Shown one piece after another: positions 30,301-49,061 of a stretch of DNA of 64,000 nt. The stretch spans positions 1,880,035 through 1,944,034 of the forward strand of contig AGIF02000001.1 of assembly GCA_000227505.4 (NCBI GenBank), given 5' to 3'. How positions within the stretch are numbered: position 1 is the stretch's first letter; the number at the start of each line of letters is the position of its first letter. The notes under the pieces were generated by a model. It worked only from the letters and a program-made list of their open reading frames with translations. It did no database searches and was not told where the DNA came from. The translations under genes were made by a program, and so were the position numbers. Origin of the DNA: a gamma proteobacterium HIMB55. GTDB taxonomy: Bacteria > Pseudomonadota > Gammaproteobacteria > Pseudomonadales > Halieaceae.

Positions 30301-30719
30301 GAGATCCTTCACAGCTCACCGCAAATTTTGCCCAATGCATCACTCGTGCGTTCCCAACCGACATCTGGCCCTTACAGGTTTACGCCGATTCGTTGGATCC
30401 AGCAAGCGACAACTTTGCTACACCGCGGAGGCACTCTTCTCACTAGAAAGGAAGCCCCCCCAGCGATGGTGTATCAGGGACCCAAAATTGAGCGTCTCAC
30501 CGTCGCGAGCGACATGTCTCTGAAGCATGAACGTCGGTAAATTTACTGGCAGGACTGACAAAAAAAGCGTCTCACAAATCGGCCGCTACCACGTCGGGGG
30601 TAGTCGCAAGCATCGCCTTAAAAAGTACCGGTAAATCGCGTTGAATTCTATTTCGTTTCGCCTCTCCTCCGAATACACTCGCCACCTTCAGAACAATAAG
30701 CTTGCCAGAGGAGACGTTC
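30301..30719. other. intergenic region between divergent genes
   Basis: The 419 bp contain no credible ORF. They must carry divergent promoters for the peptidase and the DMGDH-like gene. A 12-bp palindrome GTCGC-GA-GCGAC lies at 30502-30513. I did not recognise a riboswitch or a good sigma-70 promoter. Confidence 0.4.
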
Positions 30720-33290
30720 ATGGCAGACCTACCAAAACACGCGCGAGTTGTTGTCATCGGACAGGGCGGTATTGTCGGTGCATCCGTCGTTCATCACCTC
30801 ATCGAAGAAGGCTGGGACGACATCGTAGGGCTCGAGAAATCAGCGATTCCAACGGACATCGGATCGACCTCGCACGCTTCTGATTTCTGCTACATGACCT
30901 CGCACGACAAGCTTACTGTTTGGACGAGTCAGTACAGCCGTGAGTTCTACAAAAAGCGTGGGAACTACATTGAAATTGGCGGCCTGGAAGTCGCTCGGAA
31001 AGACGACGATGACCGCATGCTCGAGCTCATCCGTAAGGTGGGCTCTGGTAAGGCATTTGGCACCAAGGCTTACATGATCTCCGCGGCTGAAGCGAAAGAA
31101 AAATTCCCGCTTCTTGAGGAAGATCAGATCCAGGGTGCTATGTGGGATCCAGAGGCAGGCCTTGTCACACCTCGATCGCAAAAAGTAGCCGGCGATCTCG
31201 TTGACGAAGCCGTCGCAAGTGGCAAGCTCACGACATTCGCCTACACCCCAGCCACCAAAGTTTTGGTTGAAGACGGTGTCGCGGTGGGCGTCGAAACACC
31301 TAAGGGCACGATCATGGCAGACCACATCGTGCTCTGTGCCGGCATTTGGGGTTCCTTGATTTCCGAAACAGCCAACGTGAAGTTACCGCTAATGCCGCTA
31401 GAGCACCCATTGTTGTTCTTTGGACCTTGGGACCACCTCGAGGGCACAGGCAAAGATATTGTCTATCCTCTACTGCGCGATCAGGGCAACTCCGCTTATG
31501 TGCGCGATACGGGGGACCCAACGACACCCGAGGGCGGCCTGCTCGAATGGGGTTACTACGAGCCTTCCGAACCACGACTCGTAGAGGCGCGTGATATTGC
31601 TGAGCCAGGCGAGGCCCGTCTATCACCCTCCATGCGCGATATGACACTTGATCAGGTGATGGACGCGTTTGAGCGTGCTATCGAATTAACCCCAATCTTG
31701 GGCGAGCTTGGCTGGGAGGAGCGTCGATCGTTCAACGGTCTACTGTCAGTGACTGTGGACAGCGGCTCTATTATCGGTGAGTCCGTTGAAGCCAGGAATC
31801 TGTGGCTTTGCGAGGCAGTTTGGGTCAAAGACGGCCCGGGCGCTGGCAAGCTGTTAGCGGAATGGATGACGCACGGACGAACAAGCATGGATCCGCACAG
31901 CATCGATCCTGCGCGTCACTATCCAATCCAAAAGACCGACGAGTACATTAGAGGTCACTGCTACGAATCATCGCAGAAGGTTTACACACCTGCGGTACAC
32001 CCGCGTGAGCCATTCGCGACGTCTCGCGGCATGCGTGTTAGCCCATTCTACGAACGTGAAGTTGCACTGGGCGGTTACTTCATGGAAGTCGCCGGCTGGG
32101 AGCGAGCGCACGGATACGCAGCGAATGAGGCAACGTTGCTCGCGAAGTATCGCGATCAGGTACCAGTGAGAGAAGCTGAGTGGGACAACCGTCACTTCTG
32201 GGAAGTCTCCAACGCGGAACAGCTCGCCATGAGCGACGGCGTTGGCATGATCAACCTCTCACACTTCGCCATCTTCGATGTGGAAGGTTCTGACGCTGAA
32301 GCGCTCATGGAATACCTCTCTGTGGCAAAGGTTGGCGGGGACACTGCAACTGGAAAGGGTGTCTACACGCACTTCCTCGATCAAGCAGGTGGTATTCGAT
32401 CCGATTTGACCATCATCCGGCTCGCGGAGGACTGTTTCCGCGTAGTCTGCGGTGGTGACACGGGCAATCGCGACTATGTCTGGATGCGTGACATGAGTGA
32501 GCGCAAGGGCTTCCCCAATGTCACCTTCCACGATCGTAGTGAAGAGCTGTCTACTTTGGGTCTGTGGGGTCCTGAGGCGCGGGTCACTCTGGCCAAGCTG
32601 ATGGATGACCCTGAAAGCATCTCCAACGAGTCTTTCCCCTTCGCGACAACCAAGGAAATCACAGTCTGCGGCGTCAAGGTGTGGGCCTTCCGAATCAGCT
32701 ATGTGGGTGAGCAGGGCTGGGAGCTTTACTTCCCGTTCTCTGACGGCCTAGCCATTTGGGATGCGTTGTTCGAACTGGGTGTGACACCTGTCGGCATTGA
32801 GACCTATGCTAACAGCCGACGTCTTGAGAAGAGCTTACGTTTGCAAAACGCTGACCTCGAAACCGACTACAACTTGTACGAGGCTGCACTCGCACGACCC
32901 AAGGTCAAGGCCGCAGACTTCCATGGTAAAGAGGCTTACGTGCAACAGCGCGAGCTCGACGAGCAAGCAGCCTATCTCTGCACTTTTGTCCTCAAGGACA
33001 CGACGGATAGCAACGGTGTTGTGCGCTACCCCATCGGTAACTGGCCAATCCTCGACCGAGAGTCGAAAGAAGTCCTCATCGATTCGCACGGCCGGCGTTC
33101 ATACACTACAAGCATGTCCTTTGGACCTAGTCTTGGGTTAAACATCGCCATGGGTTACCTACCTGCCGACAAGGCGAAGGAGGGCAATATTGTACTTATC
33201 GAGTACTTCGGCGAGCACTACGAAGCCGAGGTGATGAAGGTAGGCTACGGTGCACTCCTGGATCCAACCAACGAACGTCCGAAGAGCTGA
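30720..33290 (+). CDS. DMGDH-like FAD-dependent N-demethylase fused to GcvT/aminomethyltransferase domain
   Basis: An 856-aa protein related to dimethylglycine and sarcosine dehydrogenases. The start is ATG 30720, 6 nt after GAGGAG; the upstream TTG is rejected. The N-terminal DAO half has the FAD-binding GQGGIVGAS (G14, G16) and GSTSHASDF, where H52 corresponds to the histidine that binds FAD covalently in DMGDH. The C-terminal half is a GcvT/YgfZ-type folate-binding domain (about residues 420-850) with SYVGEQGWELYFP, YANSRRLEKSLR and GKEAYV. Such fusions oxidise an N-methyl group and pass it to THF as methylene-THF. The exact amine is unknown. A tail-to-tail arrangement with the hpbD-like operon links it to betaine demethylation. 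Confidence 0.85.
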   Translation: MADLPKHARVVVIGQGGIVGASVVHHLIEEGWDDIVGLEKSAIPTDIGSTSHASDFCYMTSHDKLTVWTSQYSREFYKKRGNYIEIGGLEVARKDDDDRMLELIRKVGSGKAFGTKAYMISAAEAKEKFPLLEEDQIQGAMWDPEAGLVTPRSQKVAGDLVDEAVASGKLTTFAYTPATKVLVEDGVAVGVETPKGTIMADHIVLCAGIWGSLISETANVKLPLMPLEHPLLFFGPWDHLEGTGKDIVYPLLRDQGNSAYVRDTGDPTTPEGGLLEWGYYEPSEPRLVEARDIAEPGEARLSPSMRDMTLDQVMDAFERAIELTPILGELGWEERRSFNGLLSVTVDSGSIIGESVEARNLWLCEAVWVKDGPGAGKLLAEWMTHGRTSMDPHSIDPARHYPIQKTDEYIRGHCYESSQKVYTPAVHPREPFATSRGMRVSPFYEREVALGGYFMEVAGWERAHGYAANEATLLAKYRDQVPVREAEWDNRHFWEVSNAEQLAMSDGVGMINLSHFAIFDVEGSDAEALMEYLSVAKVGGDTATGKGVYTHFLDQAGGIRSDLTIIRLAEDCFRVVCGGDTGNRDYVWMRDMSERKGFPNVTFHDRSEELSTLGLWGPEARVTLAKLMDDPESISNESFPFATTKEITVCGVKVWAFRISYVGEQGWELYFPFSDGLAIWDALFELGVTPVGIETYANSRRLEKSLRLQNADLETDYNLYEAALARPKVKAADFHGKEAYVQQRELDEQAAYLCTFVLKDTTDSNGVVRYPIGNWPILDRESKEVLIDSHGRRSYTTSMSFGPSLGLNIAMGYLPADKAKEGNIVLIEYFGEHYEAEVMKVGYGALLDPTNERPKS

Positions 33291-33430: not shown

Positions 33431-34534
33431 TCAGAAGGAAGCAACCTCATTAGAGAACATGCCCTCGTCCGGAACGATACCAAGGCCAGGCCCTGCAGGT
33501 ACATTAATGTGTCCTCCGCGAATCACAATGCCATTTCTAGAATCGTAATGGCCTTCAATATAGGGCTGTGCCAACCAAACACCCTGCAGGCGATTGGGTG
33601 CCACCGTCGCGCCAAGATGAACACAGGCTGCGGCGATAATATCCCCACCCCATGAGTCATCAGAGGTATGAGGCAAATTTCGCGCCTCACAGATATCCCT
33701 GAAAACAGACATTGGCTGTAAGCCGCCAATCCGGGTCACCTTCATGCTGAAGCCGTCAGCGACACCTGAGCCTGCGGCACGCAACACCGTTGCCATATCA
33801 ACAGCCGACTCATCGACGAACACTGGGTGATTGAGCATTGGCTTTACGCTGATTATCTCCTCGAGAGTGTCGCAGGGCTGCTCCAATACAAAGGGAATAT
33901 CGGAACACGCCCGACTCAAGGTAATCGCATCAGCGGTTGTTAGCCCTCGGTTACCATCGACTGCGAGTCGCATGCGGCCACCAACGGTTTCCCAAACTTT
34001 TCGGACAACAGCAATATCCTCAGCAACAGGTCTGCCACCGATCTTTATCTGCATTCGCGGGTAACCCTCTGCGACCTTCTCCGCGGCAATTTTTGCAATA
34101 TCCTCAGGCGTCCCAACCCCACTTGCATAATACGAAGGGACGCGATCGACAGCAGCACCGCCAAGGAGCGAAGCAACAGACCTTCCCGTCTTCTTACCCA
34201 GCGCATCAAACGCAGCGATATCGACCGCCGCTTTCGCATAACGATGACCATTGAGGAGCGAGTTCATGTGACGATGAAGCATCAGAGGCTCATCAAGCCT
34301 CACTCCTATCAGAGCGGGTGCCATCTCAATCAGCGCCGCTCTGGCGCCTGCGGCGTGACTCGGCGCGTAGGTAGGTCCAACCGGACAGGTCTCTCCCCAT
34401 CCGACAGTGCCACACTCGCTCTCCAACCTTACCAGCGTTGTATCGAGTTCATAGACGGAGGCATTTGCCATCCGATAAGGCCCATTCTTTACCGGCAGAT
34501 CATGCTGATAGATGCTGATTTTCTTGAGCTTCAT
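33431..34534 (-). CDS. hpbD: 4-hydroxyproline-betaine 2-epimerase-like enolase-superfamily enzyme
   Basis: Member of the mandelate racemase/MLE group, 367 aa. The N-terminal capping domain reads [10 protein letters not shown] and [16 protein letters not shown], which I recognise as characteristic of HpbD, the hydroxyproline-betaine/proline-betaine epimerase of Pelagibaca bermudensis. Catalytic residues fall at expected places: acid/base lysines K164 (QIKIGGRP) and K265 (MKVTRIGG), and metal ligands D193, E218 and D241. The active-site DDSWGGD loop is near residue 292. It would epimerise the alpha-carbon of a proline-type betaine. Last gene of the 12-gene minus-strand cluster, 7 bp after an SDR gene. 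Related cis-3-hydroxyproline dehydratases are the main alternative. Confidence 0.75.
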
Positions 34535-34541
34535 AAGCGTC

Positions 34542-35294
34542 CTATTGCGCGACGTATCCGCCGTCTACAGAGAGCACGGTGCCTGTGATGTGACGTTGGG
34601 TAGATAAAAAGACGATCGCTGCAGCAACCTCTTCAGGCTCAGCAACACGTCCCATGGGAATGCTGGCCTCATTACGCGATACAACGGATGTTTCCATTGA
34701 GGGATCATCGTGTTCGGAGAAAAGCATCGGAGAATTGATCGCACCGGGTGCTACCGCATTCACGGTGATGTCTCTCGACGCCAATTCGAGTGCCATCGTG
34801 CGAGTCAATTGATCAACAGCACCTTTACTCGCGCAGTAAGCCGCTAAGCCCGCGGCGCCAACCTGACCACAGGTTGAAGAGACGTTCACCATCGAGCTAC
34901 CCGAGGGTGCTACTTTCGCCACAGCGCGGCTCAGATAAAAAACACCATCCACATTCGTTGCCATAACGCGGCGCCACTCTTCATCAGTGGTCGACTCGGC
35001 AGCTCTTCTGGCGATGACACCCGCGGAATTCACTAAGTCGATGGGTCGGCTACCAAACTGTTCTACCACCATGGATAAAACGTTCTCAGAAAACGTCGAG
35101 TCAGTGATGTCACCCGCACAAATCAGCGCTTCGGCACCTTGCTGCAACGGCAGACCTGCAGCCGTGATCGCCAGCTTCTCTCTATTGCGCCCAATCAGCA
35201 CACAATCCGCCCCGCGCGCTGCTAATGCCTTCGCACAGGCGGCGCCAACACCGCTTCCCGCGCCGCTAATAATCGCTATCCGCCGTTGACTCAT
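34542..35294 (-). CDS. short-chain dehydrogenase/reductase
   Basis: Classical SDR of 250 aa with the cofactor loop [12 protein letters not shown] (TGxxxGxG type), NSAG motif (NNAG variant), catalytic Ser in [14 protein letters not shown] (YxxxK) and a C-terminal [11 protein letters not shown]. The lack of an acidic residue directly after beta-2 and the presence of GRNREKL suggest NADP(H) preference. It lies 38 bp after another SDR and 7 bp before the hpbD-like gene. The substrate is unknown; a hydroxy acid formed during betaine breakdown is an inference from context only. Confidence 0.85.
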
Positions 35295-35332
35295 TGTCGC
35301 GCCTCCATGGAATCTCTCCCGTAACGCCCTTT

Positions 35333-36082
35333 CTAGAGGTTAGGGAGCGGCAGCTTAGCCAGTCGCCCACCGTCTACAACGAACTCCTGCCCGCTGACAA
35401 AACCGGATTCACTGCTCGCTAGCCAAAATACGGTATTGGCCACATCTTCAGGAAGACCTAAGCGGCCCACCGGATGAAGGGCTTCGATGGCCTCGTCAAC
35501 CGCCTCACGATCAGGATAGGCTGCCAGCAGCTGCTCGTTAAACGGTGTGTTAATCCAACCGGGTGCAACACTATTGCAACGAATGCCCAAGGGACCATAT
35601 TCGAGCGCGGTATTGTGAGTAAAGGCAGCAACGGCCGCCTTTGATGCCGCATAAACGCTGTGTAGCGGATTTGCACCCAATCCTTCAATCGAACTGATGT
35701 TTACGATTGCCGGCGCAGTTGCGGCTGGGTTGGTCATGAGTTGTAGTGCGTGCTTGGTTGTCAGGAATGTGCTCTTCACGTTGACCGCCATCACACGATC
35801 CCAATCTTGCTCAGCGAGCTCATGGATCGGTGTCTCAACGCAAATTCCTGCGTTGTTCACGAGAACATCCAAGTGTCCGTGCTGTTGTTCAACCTGCGCC
35901 ATTAAAGCTGAGACACTTGCCTCATCAGCAACATTGGTTTTGATAAAGGCAACGTTCGAATTTTTGGGCGCATTCAAATCCGCGCAGATTACGGTATCAC
36001 CTGCGTTTAGGAAACGCTCCGCAATCGCCGCACCGATGTTTTGCGCAGCACCCGTGACGACGACAATCCGTGAGGCACTCAT
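35333..36082 (-). CDS. short-chain dehydrogenase/reductase
   Basis: A 249-aa classical SDR: TGAAQNIGAAIAERF, ADLNAP (Asp after beta-2, favouring NAD), NNAG at about 90, INISS-type serine motif (VNISSIEGLG), YAASKAAV catalytic dyad and FVSGQEFVVDGG at the end. Its start overlaps the FAH-family gene by 4 nt. SDR plus FAH hydrolase is a common pair in acid-sugar and hydroxy-acid breakdown, where the SDR oxidises a hydroxyl beta to a keto group before C-C cleavage; whether that applies here is not known. Confidence 0.85.
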   Translation of the reverse strand: MSASRIVVVTGAAQNIGAAIAERFLNAGDTVICADLNAPKNSNVAFIKTNVADEASVSALMAQVEQQHGHLDVLVNNAGICVETPIHELAEQDWDRVMAVNVKSTFLTTKHALQLMTNPAATAPAIVNISSIEGLGANPLHSVYAASKAAVAAFTHNTALEYGPLGIRCNSVAPGWINTPFNEQLLAAYPDREAVDEAIEALHPVGRLGLPEDVANTVFWLASSESGFVSGQEFVVDGGRLAKLPLPNL

Positions 36083-36954
36083 ACGAAGGGAACAGGCGCT
36101 GAGTAATTGTTTTGTGGACTCGTGACCACACTACGCTGACTGCCGAGTCTATCGATGACAACCTCGACCACATCGCCCGGCTTCAGGTATTGCTGCGGAG
36201 ACATACCGTATCCAACCCCCGGAGGTGTTCCGGTCATTAATACATCACCCGGCTGCCAACTCACGTAGTTGGATAAAATCGATACCAGTTCAGCAATGCT
36301 GTACATCATGTCGGAGGTGTTACTGGACTGCATCGTCTTGCCGTTGACCTGGCAACTTATATCCAGCTGATTCGGATCCCCTACTTCATCCTTGGTGACA
36401 AGCCACGGCCCAAGCGGCTTCAACGTGTCAGCGCTCTTACCTTTGGTCCACTGGGAGCCACGCTCAAGCTGGAATACACGCTCAGACACATCATTACTCG
36501 TGCAAAAACCTGCGACATAATTCATCGCGTCGGCAACGGGAATATTCTTGCCCGCTTGACAAAAGACGACTGCCAATTCGGCTTCCCAATCGAGCTGTGT
36601 ACCGCCTTCAGGTATCACTATAGGGTCGGCAGGTCCCGTAATGGCACTCGCCGCGGTCAACATAAACATCGGCTCGGCGGGCGGCTCCATACCCGCTTCC
36701 GCCGCATGCTTGCCATAGGTCAGGGCGCAGCCGACAATTTTTCCGGGACGGAAGACAGGTGCGCCTAATCGAATATCTGCATCAAGCGCAGGAAGCGTGC
36801 TCAGATCAAGCGATCGGACTTGCTCGATTACCGAGGGCACTAGGCTGCGGTAGTCCCAATCAGGGATTAATACGCTGAGATCACGAATAACACCCGCGTC
36901 ATCGATAACGCCCGGTTTCTCACTCCCCAACTCGCCGGCTCTTACCAATTTCAT
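36079..36954 (-). CDS. fumarylacetoacetate hydrolase-family protein
   Basis: A 291-aa FAH-fold hydrolase/lyase. The metal site is visible as DWEAELAVVF (E...E) with the following Asp in NDVSERVFQLERG; the lid and active-site segment is QWTKGKSADTLKPLGPWLVT, and MTGTPPGVGYG ends the core. Enzymes of this type cleave or hydrate diketo acids such as 2,4-diketo-3-deoxy sugar acids or acylpyruvates. It overlaps the epimerase-like gene by 4 nt upstream and the SDR by 4 nt downstream, so it is firmly within the operon. Confidence 0.87.
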   Translation of the reverse strand: MKLVRAGELGSEKPGVIDDAGVIRDLSVLIPDWDYRSLVPSVIEQVRSLDLSTLPALDADIRLGAPVFRPGKIVGCALTYGKHAAEAGMEPPAEPMFMLTAASAITGPADPIVIPEGGTQLDWEAELAVVFCQAGKNIPVADAMNYVAGFCTSNDVSERVFQLERGSQWTKGKSADTLKPLGPWLVTKDEVGDPNQLDISCQVNGKTMQSSNTSDMMYSIAELVSILSNYVSWQPGDVLMTGTPPGVGYGMSPQQYLKPGDVVEVVIDRLGSQRSVVTSPQNNYSAPVPFV

Positions 36955-37922
36955 GCGTGCTTCTCCATTATTTGACTAAATAGTGCGTCGAGCGAAATAC
37001 CACGAGAACGCGCCGCCTCAAACGTCGCCATCGTATCCTGAACACCGCGATCAATGGAGCGGTAGGTTTCGATCTGTAGTAGGGCATCTAACGCGCCATC
37101 GTCGTCGTCAGCAGGAAACGGCATAGGCTCACCCGAGACGGTTAACGCCACGCTCGAAGCATGGCCTCTGACGAGATCCAAGACCTGATCGACCGAGGCC
37201 GGTGTGCCATTCATGTCGAAGACGTGGGCACCTTCATAGCTCTTTGCTGCTGCGGCAATAAATCGCTGAGCTGCGTCCTCAACGTGAACAAAAGCCACGT
37301 CACCCGTGAAGGGCGTCTCATAGTCCCGACCTGCTGACGCGGCGAGCATGGCTATCGTCGGTGCCGCGCTCATCCCTTGGTCGCGACCAGGCCCGTAGAT
37401 AATGCCCGGGCGAATGCCCACACTGGGAACGCTCCAGTCCTGCCAATAAACCGCTGCCATCTGCTCACCACAGACTTTGTGCGCACCATAAAGGGTGGAT
37501 AGGGCGTCATCAGAGGTCATGGCAGGCGCTGCAATCGAACTCGCATAACTCAACCGAGATATGGATTGCTGCCTTGCCACCTCGAGAATATTGATGCTCC
37601 CCATGACGTTGATCTGGGTGCTACCAACCGGGTCTGCCTTGCAAAAAGGCACCTGCAGGGCAGCAAGATGGATGATCGCCGCCACTGAATACTGTGTGCA
37701 CACAGAATTCAGCCGTTCGAAATCCGTAATATCGCCACACTCCCACGTCACAGCGTCAGCATCTTCCATAATCAGGTCGAGCCGCTGACGGTTTTCAACA
37801 ATGTCAAAAACCACGGGCTTTGCGCCGGCCTCCTGCAAAAGCTTCACTACCCACGCACCGATGCAGCCGGCGGCGCCGGTAACTAAGACTGATTTTCCCG
37901 TCAATAAATGCGCATGACTCAT
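36951..37922 (-). CDS. NAD-dependent epimerase/dehydratase family protein (extended SDR)
   Basis: A 323-aa extended SDR: VTGAAGCIGAWVVKLL (GxxGxxG), an Asp after beta-2 (VVFDIVENRQRLDLI), DITDFERL, HLAALQVPF, catalytic YGAHK (YxxxK) and GIRPGIIYGPGRDQGM. The usual C-terminal substrate part follows. It resembles GDH/GalE-type SDRs without specific assignment. Start and stop both overlap neighbours by 4 nt (PhyH gene before, FAH gene after). Confidence 0.85.
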   Translation of the reverse strand: MSHAHLLTGKSVLVTGAAGCIGAWVVKLLQEAGAKPVVFDIVENRQRLDLIMEDADAVTWECGDITDFERLNSVCTQYSVAAIIHLAALQVPFCKADPVGSTQINVMGSINILEVARQQSISRLSYASSIAAPAMTSDDALSTLYGAHKVCGEQMAAVYWQDWSVPSVGIRPGIIYGPGRDQGMSAAPTIAMLAASAGRDYETPFTGDVAFVHVEDAAQRFIAAAAKSYEGAHVFDMNGTPASVDQVLDLVRGHASSVALTVSGEPMPFPADDDDGALDALLQIETYRSIDRGVQDTMATFEAARSRGISLDALFSQIMEKHA

Positions 37923-38920
37923 TTCGACTGGCTCCGTAACTTTTCGCTGAAGGCGTTCAAACTTGCGACGGCTTCAGCCATTTTCTCGCCCAGCGCCTCA
38001 GGATCATCCGAGAGCCGGACTTCGTTCAATAATGCGTCCAAACGCGCCGATGTTCGCCATAGCTCATGACGCGCTAACTCGGGACGAATTGCAGGGTCTT
38101 CCCAATCAGCCATATTCAGCGTGTTGGTCGAATCGTGTGCGGAGGCGGGTAATACTTCAAAAGAAGGAATCATGGTGATGCGACTTGCACGTTCAAGCAG
38201 ACGGCATGCGCGGTGAAAGATCATCGTCCCCTGCTGCAGAAAGCCATAGCCAGCGTCAGGAAACGGAATCGTCGTTACGCGCTCTGACGGCAGCTGGGCG
38301 TCACGGCCCTCCTCTCCCTCAATACCGAGTAATGCTTGCCCCTCTTGTTTGGTCCCCTGAAAGACTTGGAATTCGCCTCCCTTAAGGACATGCGGGTCGG
38401 TCACCATCATGACGATATCAAAGCCCACCGAATCCACATGCCAGGTATCGACGGCGCGCGTGATGTCCTCGGGTGCGTAGTTAATACCACAGGCAACCGC
38501 AGGCACGGAGTGTCTGCCAAGTCGGGTGCCTGCAATCTCTGAAAGATGGGCGGCGAGTTCAGGGGAGTCACAAAAACCGCGGATGAACGTCGAGCGGTAC
38601 CCGGCACCCCGCGCGTAGCTACCCAAGCGGTTTGCCCCGGTACCCGCACTGGCGTTGCGGTTATCGTAAATTTGCTCGCAGACATGCCGCATTGTCTCAA
38701 CACCCTCATCAGACAAGATACGGAAGGCCGAGCTGTAGGCGAAATCAGAAGCAAAGCCTTCTAAATCACTTTCTTGATAGCCCAATTCACCCAGCTTAAA
38801 TGTCTCTTCAGGTGAACCTAAGGCAAGGTGTTTAGCCGGATCGAAAATAGGTTCATCGACAAGTGGCTTGTAGGGATCGGGACGACCGGCTGGAAAAGGA
38901 AGTGCGTGGTCTTTATTCAT
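37919..38920 (-). CDS. PhyH-like Fe(II)/2-oxoglutarate dioxygenase
   Basis: A 333-aa protein with a double-stranded beta-helix iron site: H161-x-D163 in TWHVDSVGFD, distal H236 in MIFHRACRLL and R247 in ASRITMIPSF as the likely 2-oxoglutarate anchor. This fits phytanoyl-CoA dioxygenase-related hydroxylases, which act on diverse small molecules. In this operon it might hydroxylate or oxidatively demethylate the betaine substrate or a later intermediate; nothing in the sequence decides this. It follows the RACo-like gene by 29 bp. Confidence 0.75.
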   Translation of the reverse strand: MNKDHALPFPAGRPDPYKPLVDEPIFDPAKHLALGSPEETFKLGELGYQESDLEGFASDFAYSSAFRILSDEGVETMRHVCEQIYDNRNASAGTGANRLGSYARGAGYRSTFIRGFCDSPELAAHLSEIAGTRLGRHSVPAVACGINYAPEDITRAVDTWHVDSVGFDIVMMVTDPHVLKGGEFQVFQGTKQEGQALLGIEGEEGRDAQLPSERVTTIPFPDAGYGFLQQGTMIFHRACRLLERASRITMIPSFEVLPASAHDSTNTLNMADWEDPAIRPELARHELWRTSARLDALLNEVRLSDDPEALGEKMAEAVASLNAFSEKLRSQSK

Positions 38921-38949
38921 ACAGCCTAGTCCTCTCTGAGAAGGTTTAG

Positions 38950-40968
38950 CTACCCGCGACGGCGTCGTCTGCGAGGCGCTTCAAGCGAGTCAGACGCCTT
39001 CTGTGCGGGCCGCTCGATAACGGAGAACAGATGCGAAAACGGGTCTGACTTGTGTGGAAACGCCATGGCGGCGACGAAATAATCCTGAAAGTCTGTCTCC
39101 GTTGCCGTTTCGATACGCTCAGCTTTATTGACGGTTCGCTGAATACTGTCGCGAGCATCATGATCCAAAAGCGCGATTCGGGCCCCAACACCCGCGGCAT
39201 TACCTGCGGACGAGACATGATCGAGCGTGCAATCCGGTATCAAACCGAGCACCATGGCGTGCTCAACGCTAATGTGGCTGCCGAAGGCTCCGGCCAGGCG
39301 GATCCGATCCACCGCAGACACCCCCATCTTATCCATCAGCAGTTTAATGCCGGCGTAGAGCGCGGCTTTTGCTAACTGGATCTGACGTACGTCATTTTGT
39401 GTCACGACGATATCGCGCTGAGACTCATCCTCGGCAAAGTGCAATACATAGGACCAGGTGCGGCCATGGGCCCGAACGCGTGACGTGCGCTCCGCAAGCG
39501 CTCCGTCAACGATACCGTCCTCTGAAATAATACCTGCCAGAAACATCTCGGCGATCACTTCGATAATTCCCGAGCCGCAGATACCAGTGATATTCAGATC
39601 GCGGGTCGACTCACTGAAGCCGGCATCGTTAGACCAGAGCTCCGATCCAATCACTCTGAATTTAGGCTCGAGGGTCTCACGATCGATTCGCACACGTTCG
39701 ATTGCACCGGCAGTTGCCCGCTGTCCTGCACTAATTTCGCCACCCTCGAAAGCCGGTCCTGTGGGACTTGAGCAAACGAGGAGCCGGTCTTTATTACCCA
39801 GAACAATTTCTGCGTTCGTGCCCACATCCACAATCAAACTCATCGCGTCATCAGTGTCAGGACTCTCAGCGAGAATCACACCTGCGGTGTCCGCACCCAC
39901 ATGGCCTGCGATACACGGCAAGACAAACAACCGCGCTTGGTTGTGCGTGTCTAGCCCCAAGTCGCGCGCTCTAAGCGTCACCGCCTCATCGACCGTGAGT
40001 GCAAAGGGTGCGCCTCCCAAGTTGATGGGATTAATGCCCAACACCAAATGATGCATGATGGGGTTGGCGACTAGCGAGATCTCCAAAATATTATCGGTGG
40101 TCTCACCCAGCTGATCCGTGAGTTCTACAAACAGTTTGCTAAGCGCAGTCTGAATAGCGGCGCTCATTGCCTCGGCACCCTCGGGGTGCATCATGATGTA
40201 ACTGACCCGACTCATTAGGTCTTCGCCGAACGGAATCTGCGGGTTCATCACACTCGCCGACGAAAGCACATCACCGGTGGAGAGGTCACACAGATGCGCA
40301 GCAACCGTCGTGGACCCCACATCGACCGCAACGCCTCGTGGTGCTTCAAAAAGCCCCGACCAGATACCTATTACTTTTCTGGACTCAAAGACGGCAACGG
40401 TCACACCACGATCGCCCGACGCAAGGGCTGTTTGCAGCCTTATAAGCTCAGACGTTTCTATGGTGAGATCAGTTAGCTCCCAATCTTCCGACAGTGCCTC
40501 GAGTAGGAGCTTTGACTCGCCCCGCGCATCCTCGAGTGTCGACTCGGGCAAGGTAACAAAATACAAGCGAGTTGCCGTATTGAGCTGAATATCGCGATGC
40601 TCGGCGTCTTTGCGGATGATTTGACGATGCACCTGACTTTCAGGGGGCACGTCGATAATAACGTCGTCGAGCAATTCCGCGTGACAACTCAGCCGCCGAC
40701 CCTCAGGTAGTGGGCCTTTCCGCTCATTAAATTTAACTTCGGTGGCAACGAGCGGAGACAGATGCTCCGGACTTGAGGTCATCTCATGCTTTTGGAAAGT
40801 GCCCGACATGCAGGCGATCTGGCAGCGGCCGCAGAGTCCACGGCCACCGCAGACCGAATCGATATCTACGCCGAGCGTTCGGGCGGCTTCGAGCAGGCGG
40901 GTGTATTTTGGAAACTCACCACGCTTTCCCGATGGTAAAAAAAGAACTTTGACCTGCTCGGCAGACAC
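38950..40968 (-). CDS. RACo-like ATP-dependent reductive activator of corrinoid proteins
   Basis: A 672-aa protein of the ASKHA/ferredoxin family (DUF4445; RACo, RamA-like). The N-terminal 2Fe-2S ferredoxin domain has C40, C46, C49 (CGGRGLCGRC) and C95. A linker and middle domain lead to an actin-like ATPase half beginning VAVDVGSTTVAAHL (D216). Proteins of this type use ATP to drive reduction of accidentally oxidised Co(II) corrinoid back to Co(I). The C terminus ends in a run of arginines (APRRRRRRG), echoed in two other members of the system. It starts 9 nt after the methyl-THF methyltransferase gene. Confidence 0.9.
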   Translation of the reverse strand: MSAEQVKVLFLPSGKRGEFPKYTRLLEAARTLGVDIDSVCGGRGLCGRCQIACMSGTFQKHEMTSSPEHLSPLVATEVKFNERKGPLPEGRRLSCHAELLDDVIIDVPPESQVHRQIIRKDAEHRDIQLNTATRLYFVTLPESTLEDARGESKLLLEALSEDWELTDLTIETSELIRLQTALASGDRGVTVAVFESRKVIGIWSGLFEAPRGVAVDVGSTTVAAHLCDLSTGDVLSSASVMNPQIPFGEDLMSRVSYIMMHPEGAEAMSAAIQTALSKLFVELTDQLGETTDNILEISLVANPIMHHLVLGINPINLGGAPFALTVDEAVTLRARDLGLDTHNQARLFVLPCIAGHVGADTAGVILAESPDTDDAMSLIVDVGTNAEIVLGNKDRLLVCSSPTGPAFEGGEISAGQRATAGAIERVRIDRETLEPKFRVIGSELWSNDAGFSESTRDLNITGICGSGIIEVIAEMFLAGIISEDGIVDGALAERTSRVRAHGRTWSYVLHFAEDESQRDIVVTQNDVRQIQLAKAALYAGIKLLMDKMGVSAVDRIRLAGAFGSHISVEHAMVLGLIPDCTLDHVSSAGNAAGVGARIALLDHDARDSIQRTVNKAERIETATETDFQDYFVAAMAFPHKSDPFSHLFSVIERPAQKASDSLEAPRRRRRRG

Positions 40969-40977
40969 CGCTGTGCG

Positions 40978-41874
40978 TTAGCCTCTTCGGCGGCCAGAAC
41001 GACCGCGACGTGCGCCAGCACCTTCTGGAGCAGGCTCGCGATAAGCCTTAATCCAATTAGCGCAATCGGGGTCGTGTCCCATCATAACGTCACCACCTCT
41101 TACTGCCTGCATCACTTCAGCGTGCAGTGGACTCGTAATCGCAGACGTCATACCCGCCCCCATGGCCATGGTGAGGAATGCTGCATTGATACCATTTCGG
41201 TTAGGGAGACCAAAACTCACATTCGACGCACCACAAGTCGTGTTGACCTTCAGCTCAGTGCGAAGACGACGAACCAACTCCATGACCTGCACGCCCGCTT
41301 GGTTGATAGCGCCAATCGGCATAACAAGCGGGTCGACCACGACATCTTCATGCGAAATACCGTAATCGGCTGCGCGCTCAACAATCTTCTTGGCTACCTT
41401 GAATCGCTCGTTCGGATCCTCAGAAATACCAGTCTCATCATTCGAGATTGCCACTACGGCAGCTCCGTACTTAGCAACAAGTGGCAGCACACGCTCAAGA
41501 ACTTCGTCCTCACCGGTAACAGAGTTCACTAGGGCTTTACCCTGATAGACCGAAAGGCCTGACTCCAACGCTTCGACAATAGAAGAATCAATGCTCAAGG
41601 GTACGTCAGTGACTGACTGAACAAGTTGGACGGCCTCCGCGAGAATACGAGGCTCATCGGCCAACGGGATGCCTGCGTTCACGTCCAACATATGCGCACC
41701 CGCAGCAACCTGCGCAAGCGCGTCTGCTTCAACGCGGCTGTAGTCACCGTTCTTCATTTCTTCCGCAAGAATCTTGCGGCCAGTGGGGTTAATACGCTCA
41801 CCAATAACAACGAAAGGTTGATCAAAACCGATGCGAACTTCTCTGGTGGCCGAGCTGATAATAGTGGTTGTCAT
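40978..41874 (-). CDS. methyltetrahydrofolate:corrinoid methyltransferase (MtgA/MtqA/MtvA type)
   Basis: Pterin-binding TIM-barrel enzyme of 298 aa related to dihydropteroate synthase and the MetH folate domain. Motifs: VIGERINPTGRK, MLDVNAG, PLSIDSS, LVNSVTGED, VAISNDETG and DPLVMPIGA. Its role is to move the methyl group between the corrinoid protein and tetrahydrofolate. The C-terminal 15 residues are Arg/Gly-rich (GARRGRSGRRRG). It sits between the PF13769-like gene (141 bp gap) and the RACo-like gene (9 bp). It is distinct from the true folP at 57.6 kb. Confidence 0.9.
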   Translation of the reverse strand: MTTTIISSATREVRIGFDQPFVVIGERINPTGRKILAEEMKNGDYSRVEADALAQVAAGAHMLDVNAGIPLADEPRILAEAVQLVQSVTDVPLSIDSSIVEALESGLSVYQGKALVNSVTGEDEVLERVLPLVAKYGAAVVAISNDETGISEDPNERFKVAKKIVERAADYGISHEDVVVDPLVMPIGAINQAGVQVMELVRRLRTELKVNTTCGASNVSFGLPNRNGINAAFLTMAMGAGMTSAITSPLHAEVMQAVRGGDVMMGHDPDCANWIKAYREPAPEGAGARRGRSGRRRG

Positions 41875-42015
41875 GAGTGTCTCCGGTGCACTAGTTTAAT
41901 CGTTGTGCACGCCTTCTTATTAAAAATATCCCGGTAATCGGTTATCTACCGCTCGACCCAATACCAAGGTGTTTTTGAGGCGCGTTTTGTAACGCCTCAG
42001 CGCTCGGGATGCAAG

Positions 42016-42321
42016 CTAATTTGCCGCATCAAATCCCTTGTTTTTCACCCAGTTCGCGAGCATCTCATCAGTCACTTCTGACTCAATGGCTTTACCGATC
42101 TCAACGGCAAGATCTTGGGCGCTTTGGTCTGACTCTATCGTGGTTGTTACGCGTCGCCATTCTTCGAGGTAGGCGTCGCTTCCACCTTTACCTGCGCGCA
42201 TTGCTGCTCTATCGATCGCAGCCTGGAAGCGATGCTCCAAAAGGTACTTCCCGCGCTCTCGGCCTCGCTTGATCAGAACCTGCGAGGGAATGTCTCGCCA
42301 ATAAACGTCTATTCGTTGCAC
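42016..42321 (-). CDS. small conserved protein (PF13769 'virulence factor' family)
   Basis: A 101-aa protein starting QRIDVYWRDIPSQVLIKRGRERGK, which I recognise as the family labelled 'virulence factor' in Pfam; the name has no established basis here. It recurs beside MttB-type and DUF1638 genes in marine bacteria, so a role in corrinoid methyl transfer is more likely than virulence. No catalytic motif is visible. It is followed by 141 bp without a gene before the methyl-THF methyltransferase, and starts 33 nt after DUF1638. Confidence 0.75.
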   Translation of the reverse strand: MQRIDVYWRDIPSQVLIKRGRERGKYLLEHRFQAAIDRAAMRAGKGGSDAYLEEWRRVTTTIESDQSAQDLAVEIGKAIESEVTDEMLANWVKNKGFDAAN

Positions 42322-42354
42322 CTATTACTCCCTCACCTATACCTTCGCTCGACC

Positions 42355-42951
42355 TCAAGAAACTGTTACGACTTGTTCCTCAAGACTCGAGGCTAGCAAA
42401 CCATAACCGGTGTCGATTATTTCGAGCGGAAGACCCAAACGATCAGCGGCCGACTCCGCAGCGGAGCGCAATGTAGCGTCATCCGTTTGAGCGAGATATA
42501 CCACTTTGCGGTAATGACCAAACAGCATACTTTCCAACTCAGGATGGGCATCGAGCTTCATATCGTCGATGACTAAGCGCTCGAAATGGCGTGCGAGAAA
42601 ATCGGTGAGATAAAACGTTCCGGGCTCGGCGTCGGCGAGTTCTTGAAATACCTCGCTAGTTGCGAAGAACTCATAGCAATGAGCACCTGGCAGTCGCTCA
42701 GCCCCAAACCGTTTCGCGACGCGATCGACACCACCGCCCGTGCCGCAGTCAGCATAGGCAATGACAATTTTTTGGTAATCGGAATGGCGCTTATCGAGCG
42801 CTTCCTCGAGCTGCTCTGCAATCCGCTCAGGGCGATTGTGTAAGGCGGCGTCTAGGCACTGAACATCGACGCCGGACCAATGATTAGCCTTTTTCAGTGC
42901 GGTGATCTCGGCGGCGAGCGCGCCGCAGCCGATGATCAAGACGCGCGACAA
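42355..42951 (-). CDS. DUF1638 protein associated with corrinoid methyltransferases
   Basis: A 198-aa protein with the DUF1638 signatures VLIIGCGALAAEI, YADCGTGGGVDRVAKRFG and FYLTDFLARHFERLVIDD. The two conserved cysteines (C9, C68) and the CGTGG motif suggest a ligand- or metal-binding Rossmann-like domain. The family is repeatedly found next to MttB homologues; its activity is unknown. It begins 5 nt after the corrinoid protein gene. Confidence 0.82.
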   Translation of the reverse strand: MSRVLIIGCGALAAEITALKKANHWSGVDVQCLDAALHNRPERIAEQLEEALDKRHSDYQKIVIAYADCGTGGGVDRVAKRFGAERLPGAHCYEFFATSEVFQELADAEPGTFYLTDFLARHFERLVIDDMKLDAHPELESMLFGHYRKVVYLAQTDDATLRSAAESAADRLGLPLEIIDTGYGLLASSLEEQVVTVS

Positions 42952-42956
42952 GTTCG

Positions 42957-43652
42957 TTAGCCTTGAGCGACGCGACGCTCTTCGACGAGCCGAACTGCGC
43001 TGACTGCCGCCTCTGCCGCATCGCGACAGTACGCATCAGCACCAACCGCTTCGCCAAACTCCTCGTTCAGCGGCGCTCCACCTACCATCACGATGTAATC
43101 ATCGCGTATGCCTTGCTCTTTGAGCGCATCAATAACAACCTTCATATACGGCATAGTTGTCGTCAGGAGTGCCGACATACCGAGAATGTCAGGCTTGTGA
43201 CGTTCCAGCGCAGCGACGTAGTCTTCAACGGCGTTATTGATACCAATGTCGTAGACCTCGAAGCCAGCGCCTTCCATCATCATTGCAACAAGGTTCTTGC
43301 CAATATCGTGGATATCGCCTTTCACTGTTCCGATCACCATCGTGCCGACGGGCTTAGCACCTGTTTCGGCAAGGAGCGGGCGCAGAATAGCCATTCCGCC
43401 TTTCATGGCGTTAGCTGCAAGTAATACCTCAGGTACGAATAAGATACCGTCGCGGAAATCGATACCTACGATGGTCATCCCATCAACCAGTGCCTTGCTC
43501 AACACCTGCTCAGCGGACCAACCTCGCTCGAGCAGAATGTTTGTACCTTCTTCGATCTCTTCTTTGAGGCCGTCGTACAAATCGTCGTGCATCTGTAACA
43601 CGAGGTCGTCATCGGACAGCTCTGAAAGGATGATGTCTTCTTCGTCGGACAT
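42957..43652 (-). CDS. corrinoid (B12-binding) methyl shuttle protein
   Basis: A 231-aa protein of the MttC/MtqC/MtbC type. The N-terminal helical cap (about residues 15-100) is followed by a cobalamin-binding Rossmann domain with the DxHxxG motif D113-x-H115-x-x-G118 (KGDIHDIGKN), where H115 is the lower axial cobalt ligand. SALLTTTM and VGGAPLNEEFGEAVGADAY follow, completing the B12 fold. It carries the methyl group between the MttB-type and folate methyltransferases. It starts 24 nt after the mttB-like gene. Confidence 0.95.
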   Translation of the reverse strand: MSDEEDIILSELSDDDLVLQMHDDLYDGLKEEIEEGTNILLERGWSAEQVLSKALVDGMTIVGIDFRDGILFVPEVLLAANAMKGGMAILRPLLAETGAKPVGTMVIGTVKGDIHDIGKNLVAMMMEGAGFEVYDIGINNAVEDYVAALERHKPDILGMSALLTTTMPYMKVVIDALKEQGIRDDYIVMVGGAPLNEEFGEAVGADAYCRDAAEAAVSAVRLVEERRVAQG

Positions 43653-43676
43653 TAGTGATGTCTCCCCTTAAATCGC

Positions 43677-45218
43677 CTAGTAGTCTCTATCGGCGAAAGA
43701 TGCTTTTTCACGCGCCATGAAGTCCAAAAGCGCCTCGTCGATCGCTGGGTCTAATGCAGGCGGCTCGTAATCCGCTAGCATCTTCTTCCAAACGCCATTT
43801 GCTCGCTGGGCCGCATCGAGGCTGCCTTCAGCTGACCACTGCTCAAAGCTGTTGTTATCGGCAATGGTCGACCGATAAAACGCGGATTCAAAATTACTTA
43901 ATGTGTGTGCTGAGCCCAAGAAGTGCTTACCGGGTCCCACCTCGTGGAAAGCTTCCATCGCTTGCGCATTCTCGGAGAGATCCATGCCCTCGAGTAGCAC
44001 CGCGAGCATGCTCGCCTGATCGCAGTCCATCACGAACTTTTCGTAGCCCATAGCGAGACCGCCCTCGAGCCAACCCGCGGTATGCAGCATAAAGTTAACG
44101 CCTGCAAGCGCTGCCGTCTGCAGCGTATTGGCAGCTTCATACGCTGCTTGCGCGTCAGGGAGCTTCGAGCCACACAAACCACCACCGCTTCGGTAAGGCA
44201 CGCCAAGACGCCTTGCCAGTGCGGCAGTTGCATAAATTACTTGGCTTGGCTCAGGTGTGCCGAAGGTTGGTGCACCCGTTGCCATGGACACAGCAGCCGC
44301 GAATGTACCGAATACAACTGGGCAGCCCGGACGAATCAACTGTGTCAATGCGATCCCTGCCATCGCCTCAGCCAAAATCTGTGTGCAGGTACCCGCAACA
44401 GTCACAGGCGACATGGCGCCAGCAAGGATGAAGGGCGAAACCACGCACGACTGATTGTTGCGAGCGTAAACCTTCAGCGATCCAAGCATGGTGCCATCGA
44501 ATACCATCGGCGAGTTGACGTTAATCAGGCTCGTTAGCACGCAGTTTTGGTCGACAAACTCATCACCAAAGACGAGTTTTGCCATATCCACGGAATCTTG
44601 AGCCCGGCGATAGTGTGTAACCGACCCCATCAACGGCTTGTCACTGTACTTGAAGTGGCTGTAGACCATATCGTAGTGACGCTTGTTCACAGGCAGGTCA
44701 ACAGGCTCACAAACGGTACCACCTGAGTGATGGATGCCTGGCGCCATGTAGGCCAACTTCACAAAATTACGGAAGTCTTCAATCGTTGAGTAGCGACGGC
44801 CGTTATCTAGGTCATGCGCAAAGGGAGGTCCGTACGCAGGTACTAATACCGTGTTCTTGCCACCGATAGTGACGCTACGCTCTGGGTTGCGAGCATGCTG
44901 AACGTACTCCGAGGGTGCAGTAGCCTGAATAATCTGGCGACACATGCCGCGCGGGAAACGGACGCGAGTGCCATCAACATTGGCCCCGGCGGCCTTGAAC
45001 AGCTCGAGTACTTCGGGGTCATCGAGAAAATCAATGCCCACCTCTTCCAAAAGCTTATCCGCGTTGTCCTCAATGAGCTGCAAGCCCTCTTCACTGAGAA
45101 TTTCAACGTAAGGAATCTTTCGCTTGATGTACGGCGCTGCCGCAGGCCCTGAGCTAGCTCGCGCTTCTCTTCGACCGGCGCGACCACCACCTTTTCGTCT
45201 TGCTGCTCTCTCAGTCAT
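43677..45218 (-). CDS. MttB-family corrinoid methyltransferase (non-pyrrolysine)
   Basis: A 513-aa member of the trimethylamine methyltransferase superfamily (COG5598). I start it at ATG 45218 (MTERAARRKGGG) with GAGAAATTCGT upstream; the in-frame extension to 45524 does not resemble the family. The core has PYVEILSEEGLQLIEDNADKLLEEVG, VRFPRGMC, YGPPFAHDLDNGRRYST and SGGGLCGSKLPDAQA. No in-frame TAG occurs, so it belongs with MtgB and MtpB, which demethylate glycine betaine and proline betaine, rather than pyrrolysine MttB. The N terminus carries an Arg/Gly/Ala-rich basic tail. First gene of the 12-gene cluster. Confidence 0.88.
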   Translation of the reverse strand: MTERAARRKGGGRAGRREARASSGPAAAPYIKRKIPYVEILSEEGLQLIEDNADKLLEEVGIDFLDDPEVLELFKAAGANVDGTRVRFPRGMCRQIIQATAPSEYVQHARNPERSVTIGGKNTVLVPAYGPPFAHDLDNGRRYSTIEDFRNFVKLAYMAPGIHHSGGTVCEPVDLPVNKRHYDMVYSHFKYSDKPLMGSVTHYRRAQDSVDMAKLVFGDEFVDQNCVLTSLINVNSPMVFDGTMLGSLKVYARNNQSCVVSPFILAGAMSPVTVAGTCTQILAEAMAGIALTQLIRPGCPVVFGTFAAAVSMATGAPTFGTPEPSQVIYATAALARRLGVPYRSGGGLCGSKLPDAQAAYEAANTLQTAALAGVNFMLHTAGWLEGGLAMGYEKFVMDCDQASMLAVLLEGMDLSENAQAMEAFHEVGPGKHFLGSAHTLSNFESAFYRSTIADNNSFEQWSAEGSLDAAQRANGVWKKMLADYEPPALDPAIDEALLDFMAREKASFADRDY

Positions 45219-46765: not shown

Positions 46766-46853
46766 GTGCACTTTGTCCGCAACGTCTGTGGTTCAATAGC
46801 CGCAACGCCCAAAGTGGCTTATCCGTACACAAAACTATAAAGAGAGTTGACTC

Positions 46854-47240: not shown

Positions 47241-47292
47241 TGCGCGAAATAGCCGCGCGTACCGTTCTAACCAAACTTTGGAGATAAACCCT

Positions 47293-47739: not shown

Positions 47740-47790
47740 TCGGCCGGGAGTTATTTTGCACCCAACTGCGAAACGGCAGGACATAAAAAA

Positions 47791-47813
47791 GCCCCGAAGT
47801 TGGGGCTTTTTTT
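47791..47813. terminator. bidirectional terminator; probably the ancestral tRNA-Leu terminator
   Basis: GCCCC-GAAGTT-GGGGC with AAAAAA before and TTTTTTTT after. On the minus strand it follows the displaced tRNA-Leu 3' end (47824) by about 18 nt, where a tRNA terminator would stand. It also ends the SnoaL-like gene on the plus strand. Confidence 0.88.
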
Positions 47814-47823
47814 TCATCGCAAT

Positions 47824-49019: not shown

Positions 49020-49061
49020 CGATGTTCATGTGGCCAGTTCGCTGGCCACTTTCAAACTTAC

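What the first reader, a model, noticed from the sequence alone, without database searches (positions are those of the whole stretch)
33431..45218. Complete corrinoid methyltransferase system fused genetically to a betaine epimerase pathway
Seen: twelve minus-strand genes, mostly overlapping or closely spaced, encode an MttB-family methyltransferase, B12 shuttle, DUF1638, a PF13769 protein, methyl-THF methyltransferase, RACo-like activator, PhyH oxygenase, extended SDR, FAH, two SDRs and an HpbD-like epimerase. Known: non-pyrrolysine MttB enzymes demethylate glycine betaine (MtgB) or proline betaine (MtpB) in anaerobes, while HpbD acts on hydroxyproline/proline betaine in marine aerobes that use Rieske demethylases. 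Inference: this aerobe removes the first N-methyl of a proline-type betaine through cobalamin and folate, then uses the linked SDR/FAH genes on the product. I know of no characterised system with this combination.
Basis: partly seen in the sequence, partly recalled or inferred. Interest (0 to 1): 0.88.

Follow-up and report, generated by a model that had tools for sequence, protein, structure and literature searches.

The report
Two betaine-eating gene cassettes joined
A probably marine bacterium carries a known vitamin-B12 machine that strips methyl groups from the common salt-protectant glycine betaine, joined to a second, apparently undescribed set of genes that looks built to break down a ring-shaped relative, (hydroxy)proline betaine, by a different chemical route.

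Summary
(A) MttB-MtgC-DUF1638-PF13769-MeTr-RACo matches the aerobic corrinoid glycine-betaine demethylase (MtgBCD plus reactivation genes) published for marine bacteria in 2025 (PMC12478193). Close copies occur in relatives without HpbD or PhyH, mostly beside dimethylglycine-dehydrogenase-like and sarcosine oxidase genes, so glycine betaine, not proline betaine, is the likely MttB substrate. (B) PhyH-eSDR-FAH-SDR1-SDR2-HpbD is a conserved unit, found away from A in SAR92, HTCC2148, Hellea and others, and cleanly absent downstream of RACo in a relative of the same genus. Betaine-type transporters (BCCT or ProVWX) lie near it in 7 of 20 loci. Its HpbD groups firmly with the solved HpbD structures, but the canonical demethylases and hydroxyproline-degrading partners are not in the cassette. 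I propose that B opens the ring of (hydroxy)proline betaine oxidatively, makes an acylpyruvate, and lets FAH cleave it to pyruvate plus dimethylglycine, where A and B meet. That route is inferred; no activity was shown. A is known; I found no description of B in the papers I could search.

The parts
43677..45218 (-). Cassette A: MttB-superfamily methyltransferase (MtgB-like), 513 aa, no in-frame stop
   Evidence: PDB best 4yyc (2.4e-227) and glycine betaine methyltransferase 9yce / 2qne (about 1e-128); TIGR02369 below cut-off
42957..43652 (-). Cassette A: corrinoid protein MtgC-like with DIHDIG motif
   Evidence: NF047996 MtgC 1.3e-59, below cut-off; motif
42355..42951 (-). Cassette A: DUF1638 (cobalamin reactivation, inferred in print)
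   Evidence: PF07796 2.3e-32; PMC5764234 passages
42016..42321 (-). Cassette A: PF13769 'virulence factor' small protein, role unknown
   Evidence: PF13769 1.8e-15; same place in the relatives' blocks except L098
40978..41874 (-). Cassette A: methyl-THF:corrinoid methyltransferase (MtgD-like)
   Evidence: NF005719 5.6e-111, above cut-off
38950..40968 (-). Cassette A: RACo/RamA-like corrinoid reductive activase
   Evidence: RACo_C_ter 1.5e-94
37919..38920 (-).
36951..37922 (-). Cassette B: extended SDR
   Evidence: PF01370 1.9e-29; best PDB an L-threonine 3-dehydrogenase 1.7e-14
36079..36954 (-). Cassette B: FAH-family hydrolase (acylpyruvase-like)
   Evidence: best PDB 8gsr L-2,4-diketo-3-deoxyrhamnonate hydrolase 1.9e-78; NF053535 323 bits, cut-off 500
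35333..36082 (-). Cassette B: classical SDR1
   Evidence: PF13561 1.8e-62
34542..35294 (-). Cassette B: classical SDR2
   Evidence: PF13561 1e-52
33431..34534 (-). Cassette B: HpbD-clade betaine 2-epimerase-like enzyme
   Evidence: PDB 4e8g/4izg/4j1o 1e-161, 2pmq/4h2h about 3e-135, next sequence 5e-64; conserved residues
33314..33338 (-). terminator-like hairpin after HpbD, between the convergent HpbD and DMGDH-like genes
   Evidence: 11-pair stem with T-tail; consensus match only
30702..33290 (+). dimethylglycine oxidase/dehydrogenase-like flavoprotein, convergent neighbour
   Evidence: 1pj5 dimethylglycine oxidase 3.1e-107 (from 30723); 88% copy at the same place in L002

Best explanation
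Two catabolic cassettes for methylated osmolytes have been joined into one closely spaced run of genes. Cassette A (MttB down to RACo, 45218-38950) is the aerobic corrinoid glycine-betaine demethylase: MttB/MtgB moves a methyl to MtgC-cobalamin, MeTr/MtgD moves it to tetrahydrofolate, RACo and DUF1638 re-reduce the cobalamin; product dimethylglycine (my probability 0.8). Cassette B (PhyH-eSDR-FAH-SDR1-SDR2-HpbD) is a separate pathway for a cyclic betaine of the proline/4-hydroxyproline-betaine type (0.65). HpbD sets the C2 stereochemistry; the Fe/2OG oxygenase hydroxylates the ring, which opens; the SDRs raise the chain to a 2,4-dioxo acid; FAH hydrolyses this acylpyruvate to pyruvate plus an N-methylated amino acid, dimethylglycine if the substrate is 4-hydroxyproline betaine (0.3 for this product). 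The convergent DMGDH-like gene would act on it. Shown: gene content, cassette boundaries, co-occurrence, family assignments, predicted fold. Inferred: substrates, reaction order and every activity.
For: A: the gene set equals the published one. In 293 genomes of the order 21 have an MttB at E<=1e-60, only 4 of these 21 an HpbD at E<=1e-80. I fetched 12 of the 21 MttB regions: 10 show the block or part of it, and 7 of 10 carry a DMGDH-like or SoxB gene beside it; an eighth has a TmpA/gamma-butyrobetaine-dioxygenase-like gene. B: 20 loci hold PhyH and eSDR; 9 show corrinoid-block genes, 11 do not. G280's block matches L006 on both sides (83% and 80% DNA identity), but the 5.8 kb PhyH-HpbD unit is missing, with about 160 bases in its place. 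Betaine-type transporters near B in 7 of 20: BCCT in L009 and L012-L016, ProVWX in L048. In the order, 3 of 3 genomes with strong PhyH have MttB (18 of the other 290; p 3e-4) and 4 of 5 with HpbD (17 of the other 288; p 9e-5), linked or not. HpbD keeps K164, K265, D193, E218, D241, Y56, W320 in all 13 rows (two rows are the same gene). FAH is nearest a 2,4-dioxo-acid hydrolase. The own genome has SoxA-like and further DMGDH-like frames but no close OYE-type flavoprotein (best 29%).
Against: No activity, expression or metabolite data. HpbD is absent after SDR2 in 5 of the 17 loci where its place is held (L013, L016, L017, L048, and L018, where only about 540 bases are held). FAH is missing in L011 and only a 69-residue match remains at its place in L012. 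One oxygenase and three dehydrogenases are more than my route needs; the order is not fixed. No betaine transporter was seen near B in the window or in 12 other loci, several of them truncated; L052 has sugar-type MFS transporters instead. The window's DMGDH-like protein is only 26-28% like those beside the block elsewhere and its close copy next to B is seen only in L002. G280 has the block without DMGDH, Sox or B nearby. In L016 an MttB of another clade sits beside B and an OYE-type gene, and L014 has a remote MTTB protein (26%) near B, so some MttBs may serve B's substrate. The best NCBIfam model for HpbD is cis-3-hydroxy-L-proline dehydratase (256 bits, cut-off 500). Co-occurrence p values ignore relatedness; I set aside G131's weak PhyH match (1.9e-68).
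Confidence: 0.6

Rival explanations
1. One reading: one pathway in which MttB removes the first N-methyl of proline or hydroxyproline betaine via cobalamin and folate, and the HpbD/SDR/FAH genes degrade the product.
For: The genes are contiguous and co-directional in the window, L002 and L006. Eubacterium MtpB is a proline-betaine MttB (cited). In L016 an MttB of a different clade follows SDR2 and precedes an OYE-type flavoprotein, 66% like one beside an HpbD in L054, so such a combination may exist there. MttB and HpbD co-occur in 4 of 5 HpbD genomes.
Against: The window MttB falls in an 11-row clade (100/99; one row is the window's own repeat) that holds copies from four genomes without cassette B, three of them beside a DMGDH-like gene; L016's MttB is in another clade. 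G280 of the same genus keeps the block without HpbD or PhyH. In G159 and G241 the cassettes are unlinked. No close OYE-type flavoprotein in the genome to take N-methylproline further (that this is its role is recalled).
Confidence: 0.15
2. Cassette B degrades a non-nitrogenous acid sugar: oxidation, dehydration by the enolase-superfamily enzyme, then 2-keto-3-deoxy acid oxidation by SDR and cleavage by FAH, as in the L-rhamnose/L-fucose diketo-hydrolase pathway (pathway recalled).
For: FAH is closest to L-2,4-diketo-3-deoxyrhamnonate hydrolase; SDRs and an extended SDR fit; L052 has sugar-type MFS transporters and a GFO/IDH/MocA gene nearby.
Against: The enolase-superfamily member scores 541 and 454 bits to HpbD-clade structures, and at most 67 bits to the acid-sugar dehydratase models listed. 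B lies near BCCT or ProVWX transporters in 7 of 20 loci. No sugar-acid dehydratase or lactonase family among the cassette's genes.
Confidence: 0.12
3. HpbD here belongs to a canonical hydroxyproline-betaine pathway whose demethylases and hydroxyproline-degrading enzymes are encoded elsewhere in the genome; the SDRs, FAH and PhyH serve something else.
For: HpbD-clade membership is firm. The genome has 12 Rieske-domain matches that could include a betaine demethylase. HpbD is the part of B most often absent.
Against: HpbD closes the unit in 12 of 17 loci. The published downstream enzymes (D-amino-acid oxidase, DHDPS-type, semialdehyde dehydrogenase; passage) are not in the cassette. The OYE flavoprotein beside HpbD in L054 has no close copy here. 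I did not search the genome for the downstream enzymes.
Confidence: 0.15

Closest known systems
Aerobic MtgBCD glycine-betaine demethylase with RamA and DUF1638 (Ruegeria pomeroyi; PMC12478193)
   Same: Same MttB, corrinoid, pterin methyltransferase, RamA-like and DUF1638 parts; neighbours for dimethylglycine and sarcosine demethylation in relatives
   Different: The window genome also holds a 1249-aa frame with a PF02574 match, taken as full MetH; the MetF pair is missing from the block here; joined to cassette B
HpbD / proline-betaine racemase (PDB 2pmq, 4h2h, 4e8g, 4izg, 4j1o; that these are HpbDs is recalled, the entries are titled only as enolase-superfamily proteins)
   Same: Closest by score, with catalytic, metal and aromatic residues conserved
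   Different: Partner genes: Fe/2OG oxygenase, SDRs and FAH in place of Rieske/flavin demethylases and hydroxyproline catabolism
L-rhamnose/L-fucose diketo-hydrolase pathway (FAH 8gsr)
   Same: SDR plus FAH acylpyruvase logic
   Different: No acid-sugar dehydratase; betaine-type transporters near 7 of 20 loci; an oxygenase in the set
BesD/HalB/HalD and hydroxylase homolog 7jsd (Fe/2OG enzymes on free amino acids)
   Different: 13-18% identity; HxD kept, unlike halogenases (motif difference recalled)

Membership tests
Aerobic MtgBCD glycine-betaine demethylase | non-pyrrolysine MttB, corrinoid protein with DxHxxG, pterin-binding methyltransferase | tested here: met
   513-aa MttB without in-frame stop; DIHDIG at 113; NF005719 above cut-off
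Aerobic MtgBCD glycine-betaine demethylase | RamA-like activase and DUF1638 alongside | tested here: met
Aerobic MtgBCD glycine-betaine demethylase | co-location with dimethylglycine/sarcosine demethylation genes | tested here: met
   7 of 10 block-bearing regions fetched have a DMGDH-like or SoxB gene; DMGDH-like convergent gene near the run in the window; not met in G280 and G241 regions
Aerobic MtgBCD glycine-betaine demethylase | methyl transfer from glycine betaine | not testable with these tools
   needs enzyme assay or mutant
HpbD betaine 2-epimerase | closest relatives are HpbD structures, well above other MLE-subgroup enzymes | tested here: met
   541 and 454 bits against 220 for the next
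HpbD betaine 2-epimerase | two catalytic lysines, three metal ligands, aromatic betaine cage (roles recalled) | tested here: met
   K164, K265, D193, E218, D241, Y56, W320 invariant in 13 rows and shared by 4e8g, 2pmq, 4h2h; 4mgg lacks W320
HpbD betaine 2-epimerase | epimerase activity on proline betaines | not testable with these tools
   needs assay
Canonical hydroxyproline-betaine catabolic cluster | demethylases and D-hydroxyproline degradation genes next to HpbD | tested here: not met
   none in the window cassette; of the HpbD-bearing loci only L005 shows a Rieske gene nearby, searched with that one Rieske protein
Rhamnose/fucose diketo-hydrolase pathway | FAH close to 2,4-diketo-3-deoxy-acid hydrolase | tested here: met
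   8gsr 1.9e-78; NF053535 below its cut-off
Rhamnose/fucose diketo-hydrolase pathway | acid-sugar dehydratase of the enolase superfamily | tested here: not met
   enolase-superfamily gene is HpbD-clade; rhamnonate dehydratase model 21 bits, cut-off 393
BesD/HalD amino-acid halogenases | HxG in place of HxD (recalled) | tested here: not met
   H161-V-D163, invariant in 16 rows
Phytanoyl-CoA dioxygenase (Pfam PhyH) | match to the PhyH model | tested here: inconclusive
   no PhyH hit at 1e-3; HalD 23.2 bits, cut-off 26

The most novel reading that the evidence does not exclude
Cassette B is a new ring-cleaving route for (hydroxy)proline betaine that never demethylates the intact ring. A 2-oxoglutarate oxygenase attacks the ring carbon next to the quaternary nitrogen (or a neighbouring carbon), the ring falls open, the chain is oxidised to 5-(dimethylamino)-2,4-dioxopentanoate, and an acylpyruvase splits it into pyruvate and dimethylglycine, feeding the same pool as corrinoid glycine-betaine demethylation.
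Probability: 0.3. Interest if true: 0.75.

Novelty: new variant of a known kind. Interest (0 to 1): 0.55.

Why it matters
Betaines are an important pool of labile nitrogen and carbon in the sea (glycine betaine: PMC12478193). The corrinoid half adds a further marine-type lineage to a recently published aerobic route. The other half marks an apparently undescribed betaine-catabolic cassette in bacteria named as marine clades (OM60/NOR5, Luminiphilus, SAR92, HTCC2148, Hellea), testable with five or six enzymes. If it cleaves the ring to pyruvate and dimethylglycine, it would be a second way for bacteria to use proline betaines, and a marker gene set for it in metagenomes.

Tried and rejected
Acid-sugar pathway for B: considered because of FAH and SDRs; set aside for HpbD-clade identity and betaine-type transporters. 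Split methionine synthase as the main role of A: the genome has a 1249-aa frame with a PF02574 match plus two other matches, so A is probably not needed for that; a side role is not excluded. Pyrrolysine-type MttB: no in-frame stop. SDR1 and eSDR against solved structures gave only generic matches. PhyH in plasmids: one weak match at 25%. PhyH (A1) in 398 phylum genomes: only the own genome at E<=1e-60. In 369 class genomes: 6 with a match, the own one included; of the other five, G515 (the contig of L017) and G399 hold the cassette, G504, G480 and G351 only a lone PhyH relative at 35-39%. MetF in the own genome: no match, but itself warns that this shows nothing. L012's second FAH (30%) lies beside an HpaE-type aldehyde dehydrogenase, so I do not count it for B. 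TmpA labels: scores for TmpA and gamma-butyrobetaine dioxygenase are nearly tied and below both cut-offs in L015 and L097, so I no longer count them as glycine-betaine evidence; the TmpB-like gene shows only an HD domain. Paper searches meant to find B (with 0 papers, 78, 79) gave listings in which I saw nothing of the kind, and I opened only the papers named here. Only open-licence papers are held. Zhao 2013 and Kumar 2014 are not, so their content is recalled or taken from passages of PMC4113996 and PMC5144071.

Full report

Cassette A is known. PMC12478193 (abstract and introduction, Results part 1, section 7, Discussion and passages seen) shows for Ruegeria pomeroyi that MtgC and MtgD are needed for growth on glycine betaine and for methionine synthesis. 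MttB-family MtgB, RamA and DUF1638 proteins rise on N-osmolytes. It reports such genes, often co-located, in marine Alpha-, Gamma- and Deltaproteobacteria. PMC5764234 (passages) ties a DUF4445/RamA-like and a DUF1638 protein to methionine synthesis and probable B12 reactivation. The window block is this set. 4yyc, filed as a putative trimethylamine methyltransferase, is the closest structure to MttB (that it comes from S. meliloti is recalled).

Substrate of MttB. The genome (2.74 Mb, one contig) has one MttB. In 293 genomes of the order, own included, 21 have an MttB at E<=1e-60, 5 an HpbD at E<=1e-80, and 4 a PhyH at E<=1e-60, one of them weak. I fetched 12 of the 21 MttB regions, mostly the best-scoring. 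Ten show the block or part of it; two (L100, L101) show only MttB by these queries. Of the ten, a DMGDH-like gene lies beside it in five and SoxB in six; seven have one or both. L097 has instead a gene that scores about equally as TmpA and as gamma-butyrobetaine dioxygenase; L090 and L095 have none of these. SoxB was confirmed by model for L013 and L094; the other SoxB copies rest on 58-62% identity to L013's. The DMGDH-like protein of L092 has the DAO + FAO_M + GCV_T make-up. Two of the ten genomes also hold cassette B (G159, G241); of the other eight, six have a DMGDH-like or SoxB neighbour. The MttB tree puts the window copy in an 11-row clade (100/99) with copies from four genomes without cassette B. 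Glycine betaine to dimethylglycine is therefore the best reading.

Cassette B is a unit. With the loci and regions, 20 distinct loci hold PhyH and the extended SDR: window, L002-L018, L048, L052. L047 repeats L017 and L022 repeats L014; L019 and L049-L051 have PhyH alone and were dropped; L053 and L054 have HpbD without PhyH and were dropped. Nine of the 20 show corrinoid-block genes (window, L002-L008, L015). Eleven do not within the held flanks, though L016 has an MttB of another clade and L014 a remote MTTB protein, 26%. HpbD closes the unit in 12 of the 17 loci where its place is held (partial in L004, broken in L015). It is missing in L013, L016, L017, L048 and, as far as held, L018; its place is not held in L003, L007, L008. 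FAH is missing in L011 and only a fragment in L012. In G280 (same genus; no HpbD or PhyH at the cut-offs used) the block matches L006 at 83% DNA identity up to the end of RACo. The match resumes (80%) 5.8 kb later in L006 but only about 160 bases later in G280: a clean presence/absence of cassette B.

Cassette B and betaines. BCCT-type transporters lie near B in L009 and L012-L016 (none reaches an NCBIfam cut-off for a named substrate). In L048 a ProX (425 bits, cut-off 215), a ProV-family ATPase (362 bits, cut-off 327) and a ProW-like permease (376 bits, cut-off 439) follow SDR2, and a choline-dehydrogenase-type gene precedes PhyH. The other 13 loci show none, several being truncated. L013 (Hellea balneolensis) also has sarcosine oxidase genes: soxA and soxB above cut-off, soxD by Pfam. 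In the order, genomes with strong PhyH (3) or HpbD (5) carry MttB more often than others (3 of 3 and 4 of 5; Fisher p 3.2e-4 and 9.5e-5; relatedness not corrected), though in G159 and G241 the cassettes are far apart.

HpbD. Scores are 541 and 454 bits to 4e8g and 2pmq/4h2h and 220 to the next sequence. The residues I take, from recall, for catalysis, metal and betaine cage are invariant in 13 rows, two of which are the same gene, and shared with the three structures; 4mgg lacks W320. The best NCBIfam model is cis-3-hydroxy-L-proline dehydratase at half its cut-off, a related MLE-subgroup activity (passage). But the published downstream steps (passage) have no genes in the cassette, and the OYE-type flavoprotein beside HpbD in L054 has no close copy in the genome (best 29%). 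That this OYE demethylates N-methylproline is recalled by analogy with StcD (one search gives StcD's role, not its family).

Mechanism for B (inference). The FAH is closest to a 2,4-dioxo-acid hydrolase, so the acylpyruvate is the firmest inferred intermediate, though two loci lack a whole FAH. From 4-hydroxyproline betaine, oxygenation next to the quaternary nitrogen would open the ring to a 4-hydroxy-2-oxo acid. Oxidation by an SDR and FAH cleavage would then give pyruvate and dimethylglycine. An alternative order, SDR oxidation to the 4-ketone, elimination, hydration and oxidation, ends at the same products. The genome's SoxA-like frames (49% and 35% to L013's) and further DMGDH-like frames (34-36% to L092's) could finish dimethylglycine.

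Verdict. A is known; I found no description of B in the papers I could search.

Noticed in passing
window 41875-42015; L002, L096, L098, L099: The MetF and MetF-C (PF12225) pair that sits between PF13769 and MeTr in L003, L005-L008, L015, L090, L092-L095 and L097 is missing from the block in the window, L002, L096, L098 and L099. One search found no match to that MetF in the own genome, which by its own warning shows little. Where methyl-THF goes here is open.
   Followed up: partly
L016:14330-19749: Hellea MAG: cassette B without HpbD, followed by an MttB of another clade, an OYE-type flavoprotein, a TmpA-like gene (318 bits, cut-off 400) and an HD-domain gene; a candidate aerobic proline-betaine MttB.
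   Followed up: partly
L055, L056 (own genome); L002, L015, L016: A TonB receptor and a TPR-sulfotransferase gene recur as a pair, with BCCT transporters nearby in L055, L056, L015 and L016; possible outer-membrane betaine uptake set.
   Followed up: no
window about 46000-56000: Lower GC (0.47-0.49 against 0.50-0.57 elsewhere) up to tRNA-Leu at 55650-55735; possible genomic island.
   Followed up: no
window 45605-46765 +: Short glycerol-3-phosphate-dehydrogenase-like DAO protein (386 aa; NF008899 215 bits, cut-off 360), divergent from MttB.
   Followed up: no
L088 (G241), L009, L014, L015: The PhyH frame in G241 holds one TAG; PhyH frames in L009, L014 and L015 and SDR1 and HpbD in L015 look shortened or split, and an ORF in L014 has a run of unknown residues. 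Left as found.
   Followed up: no
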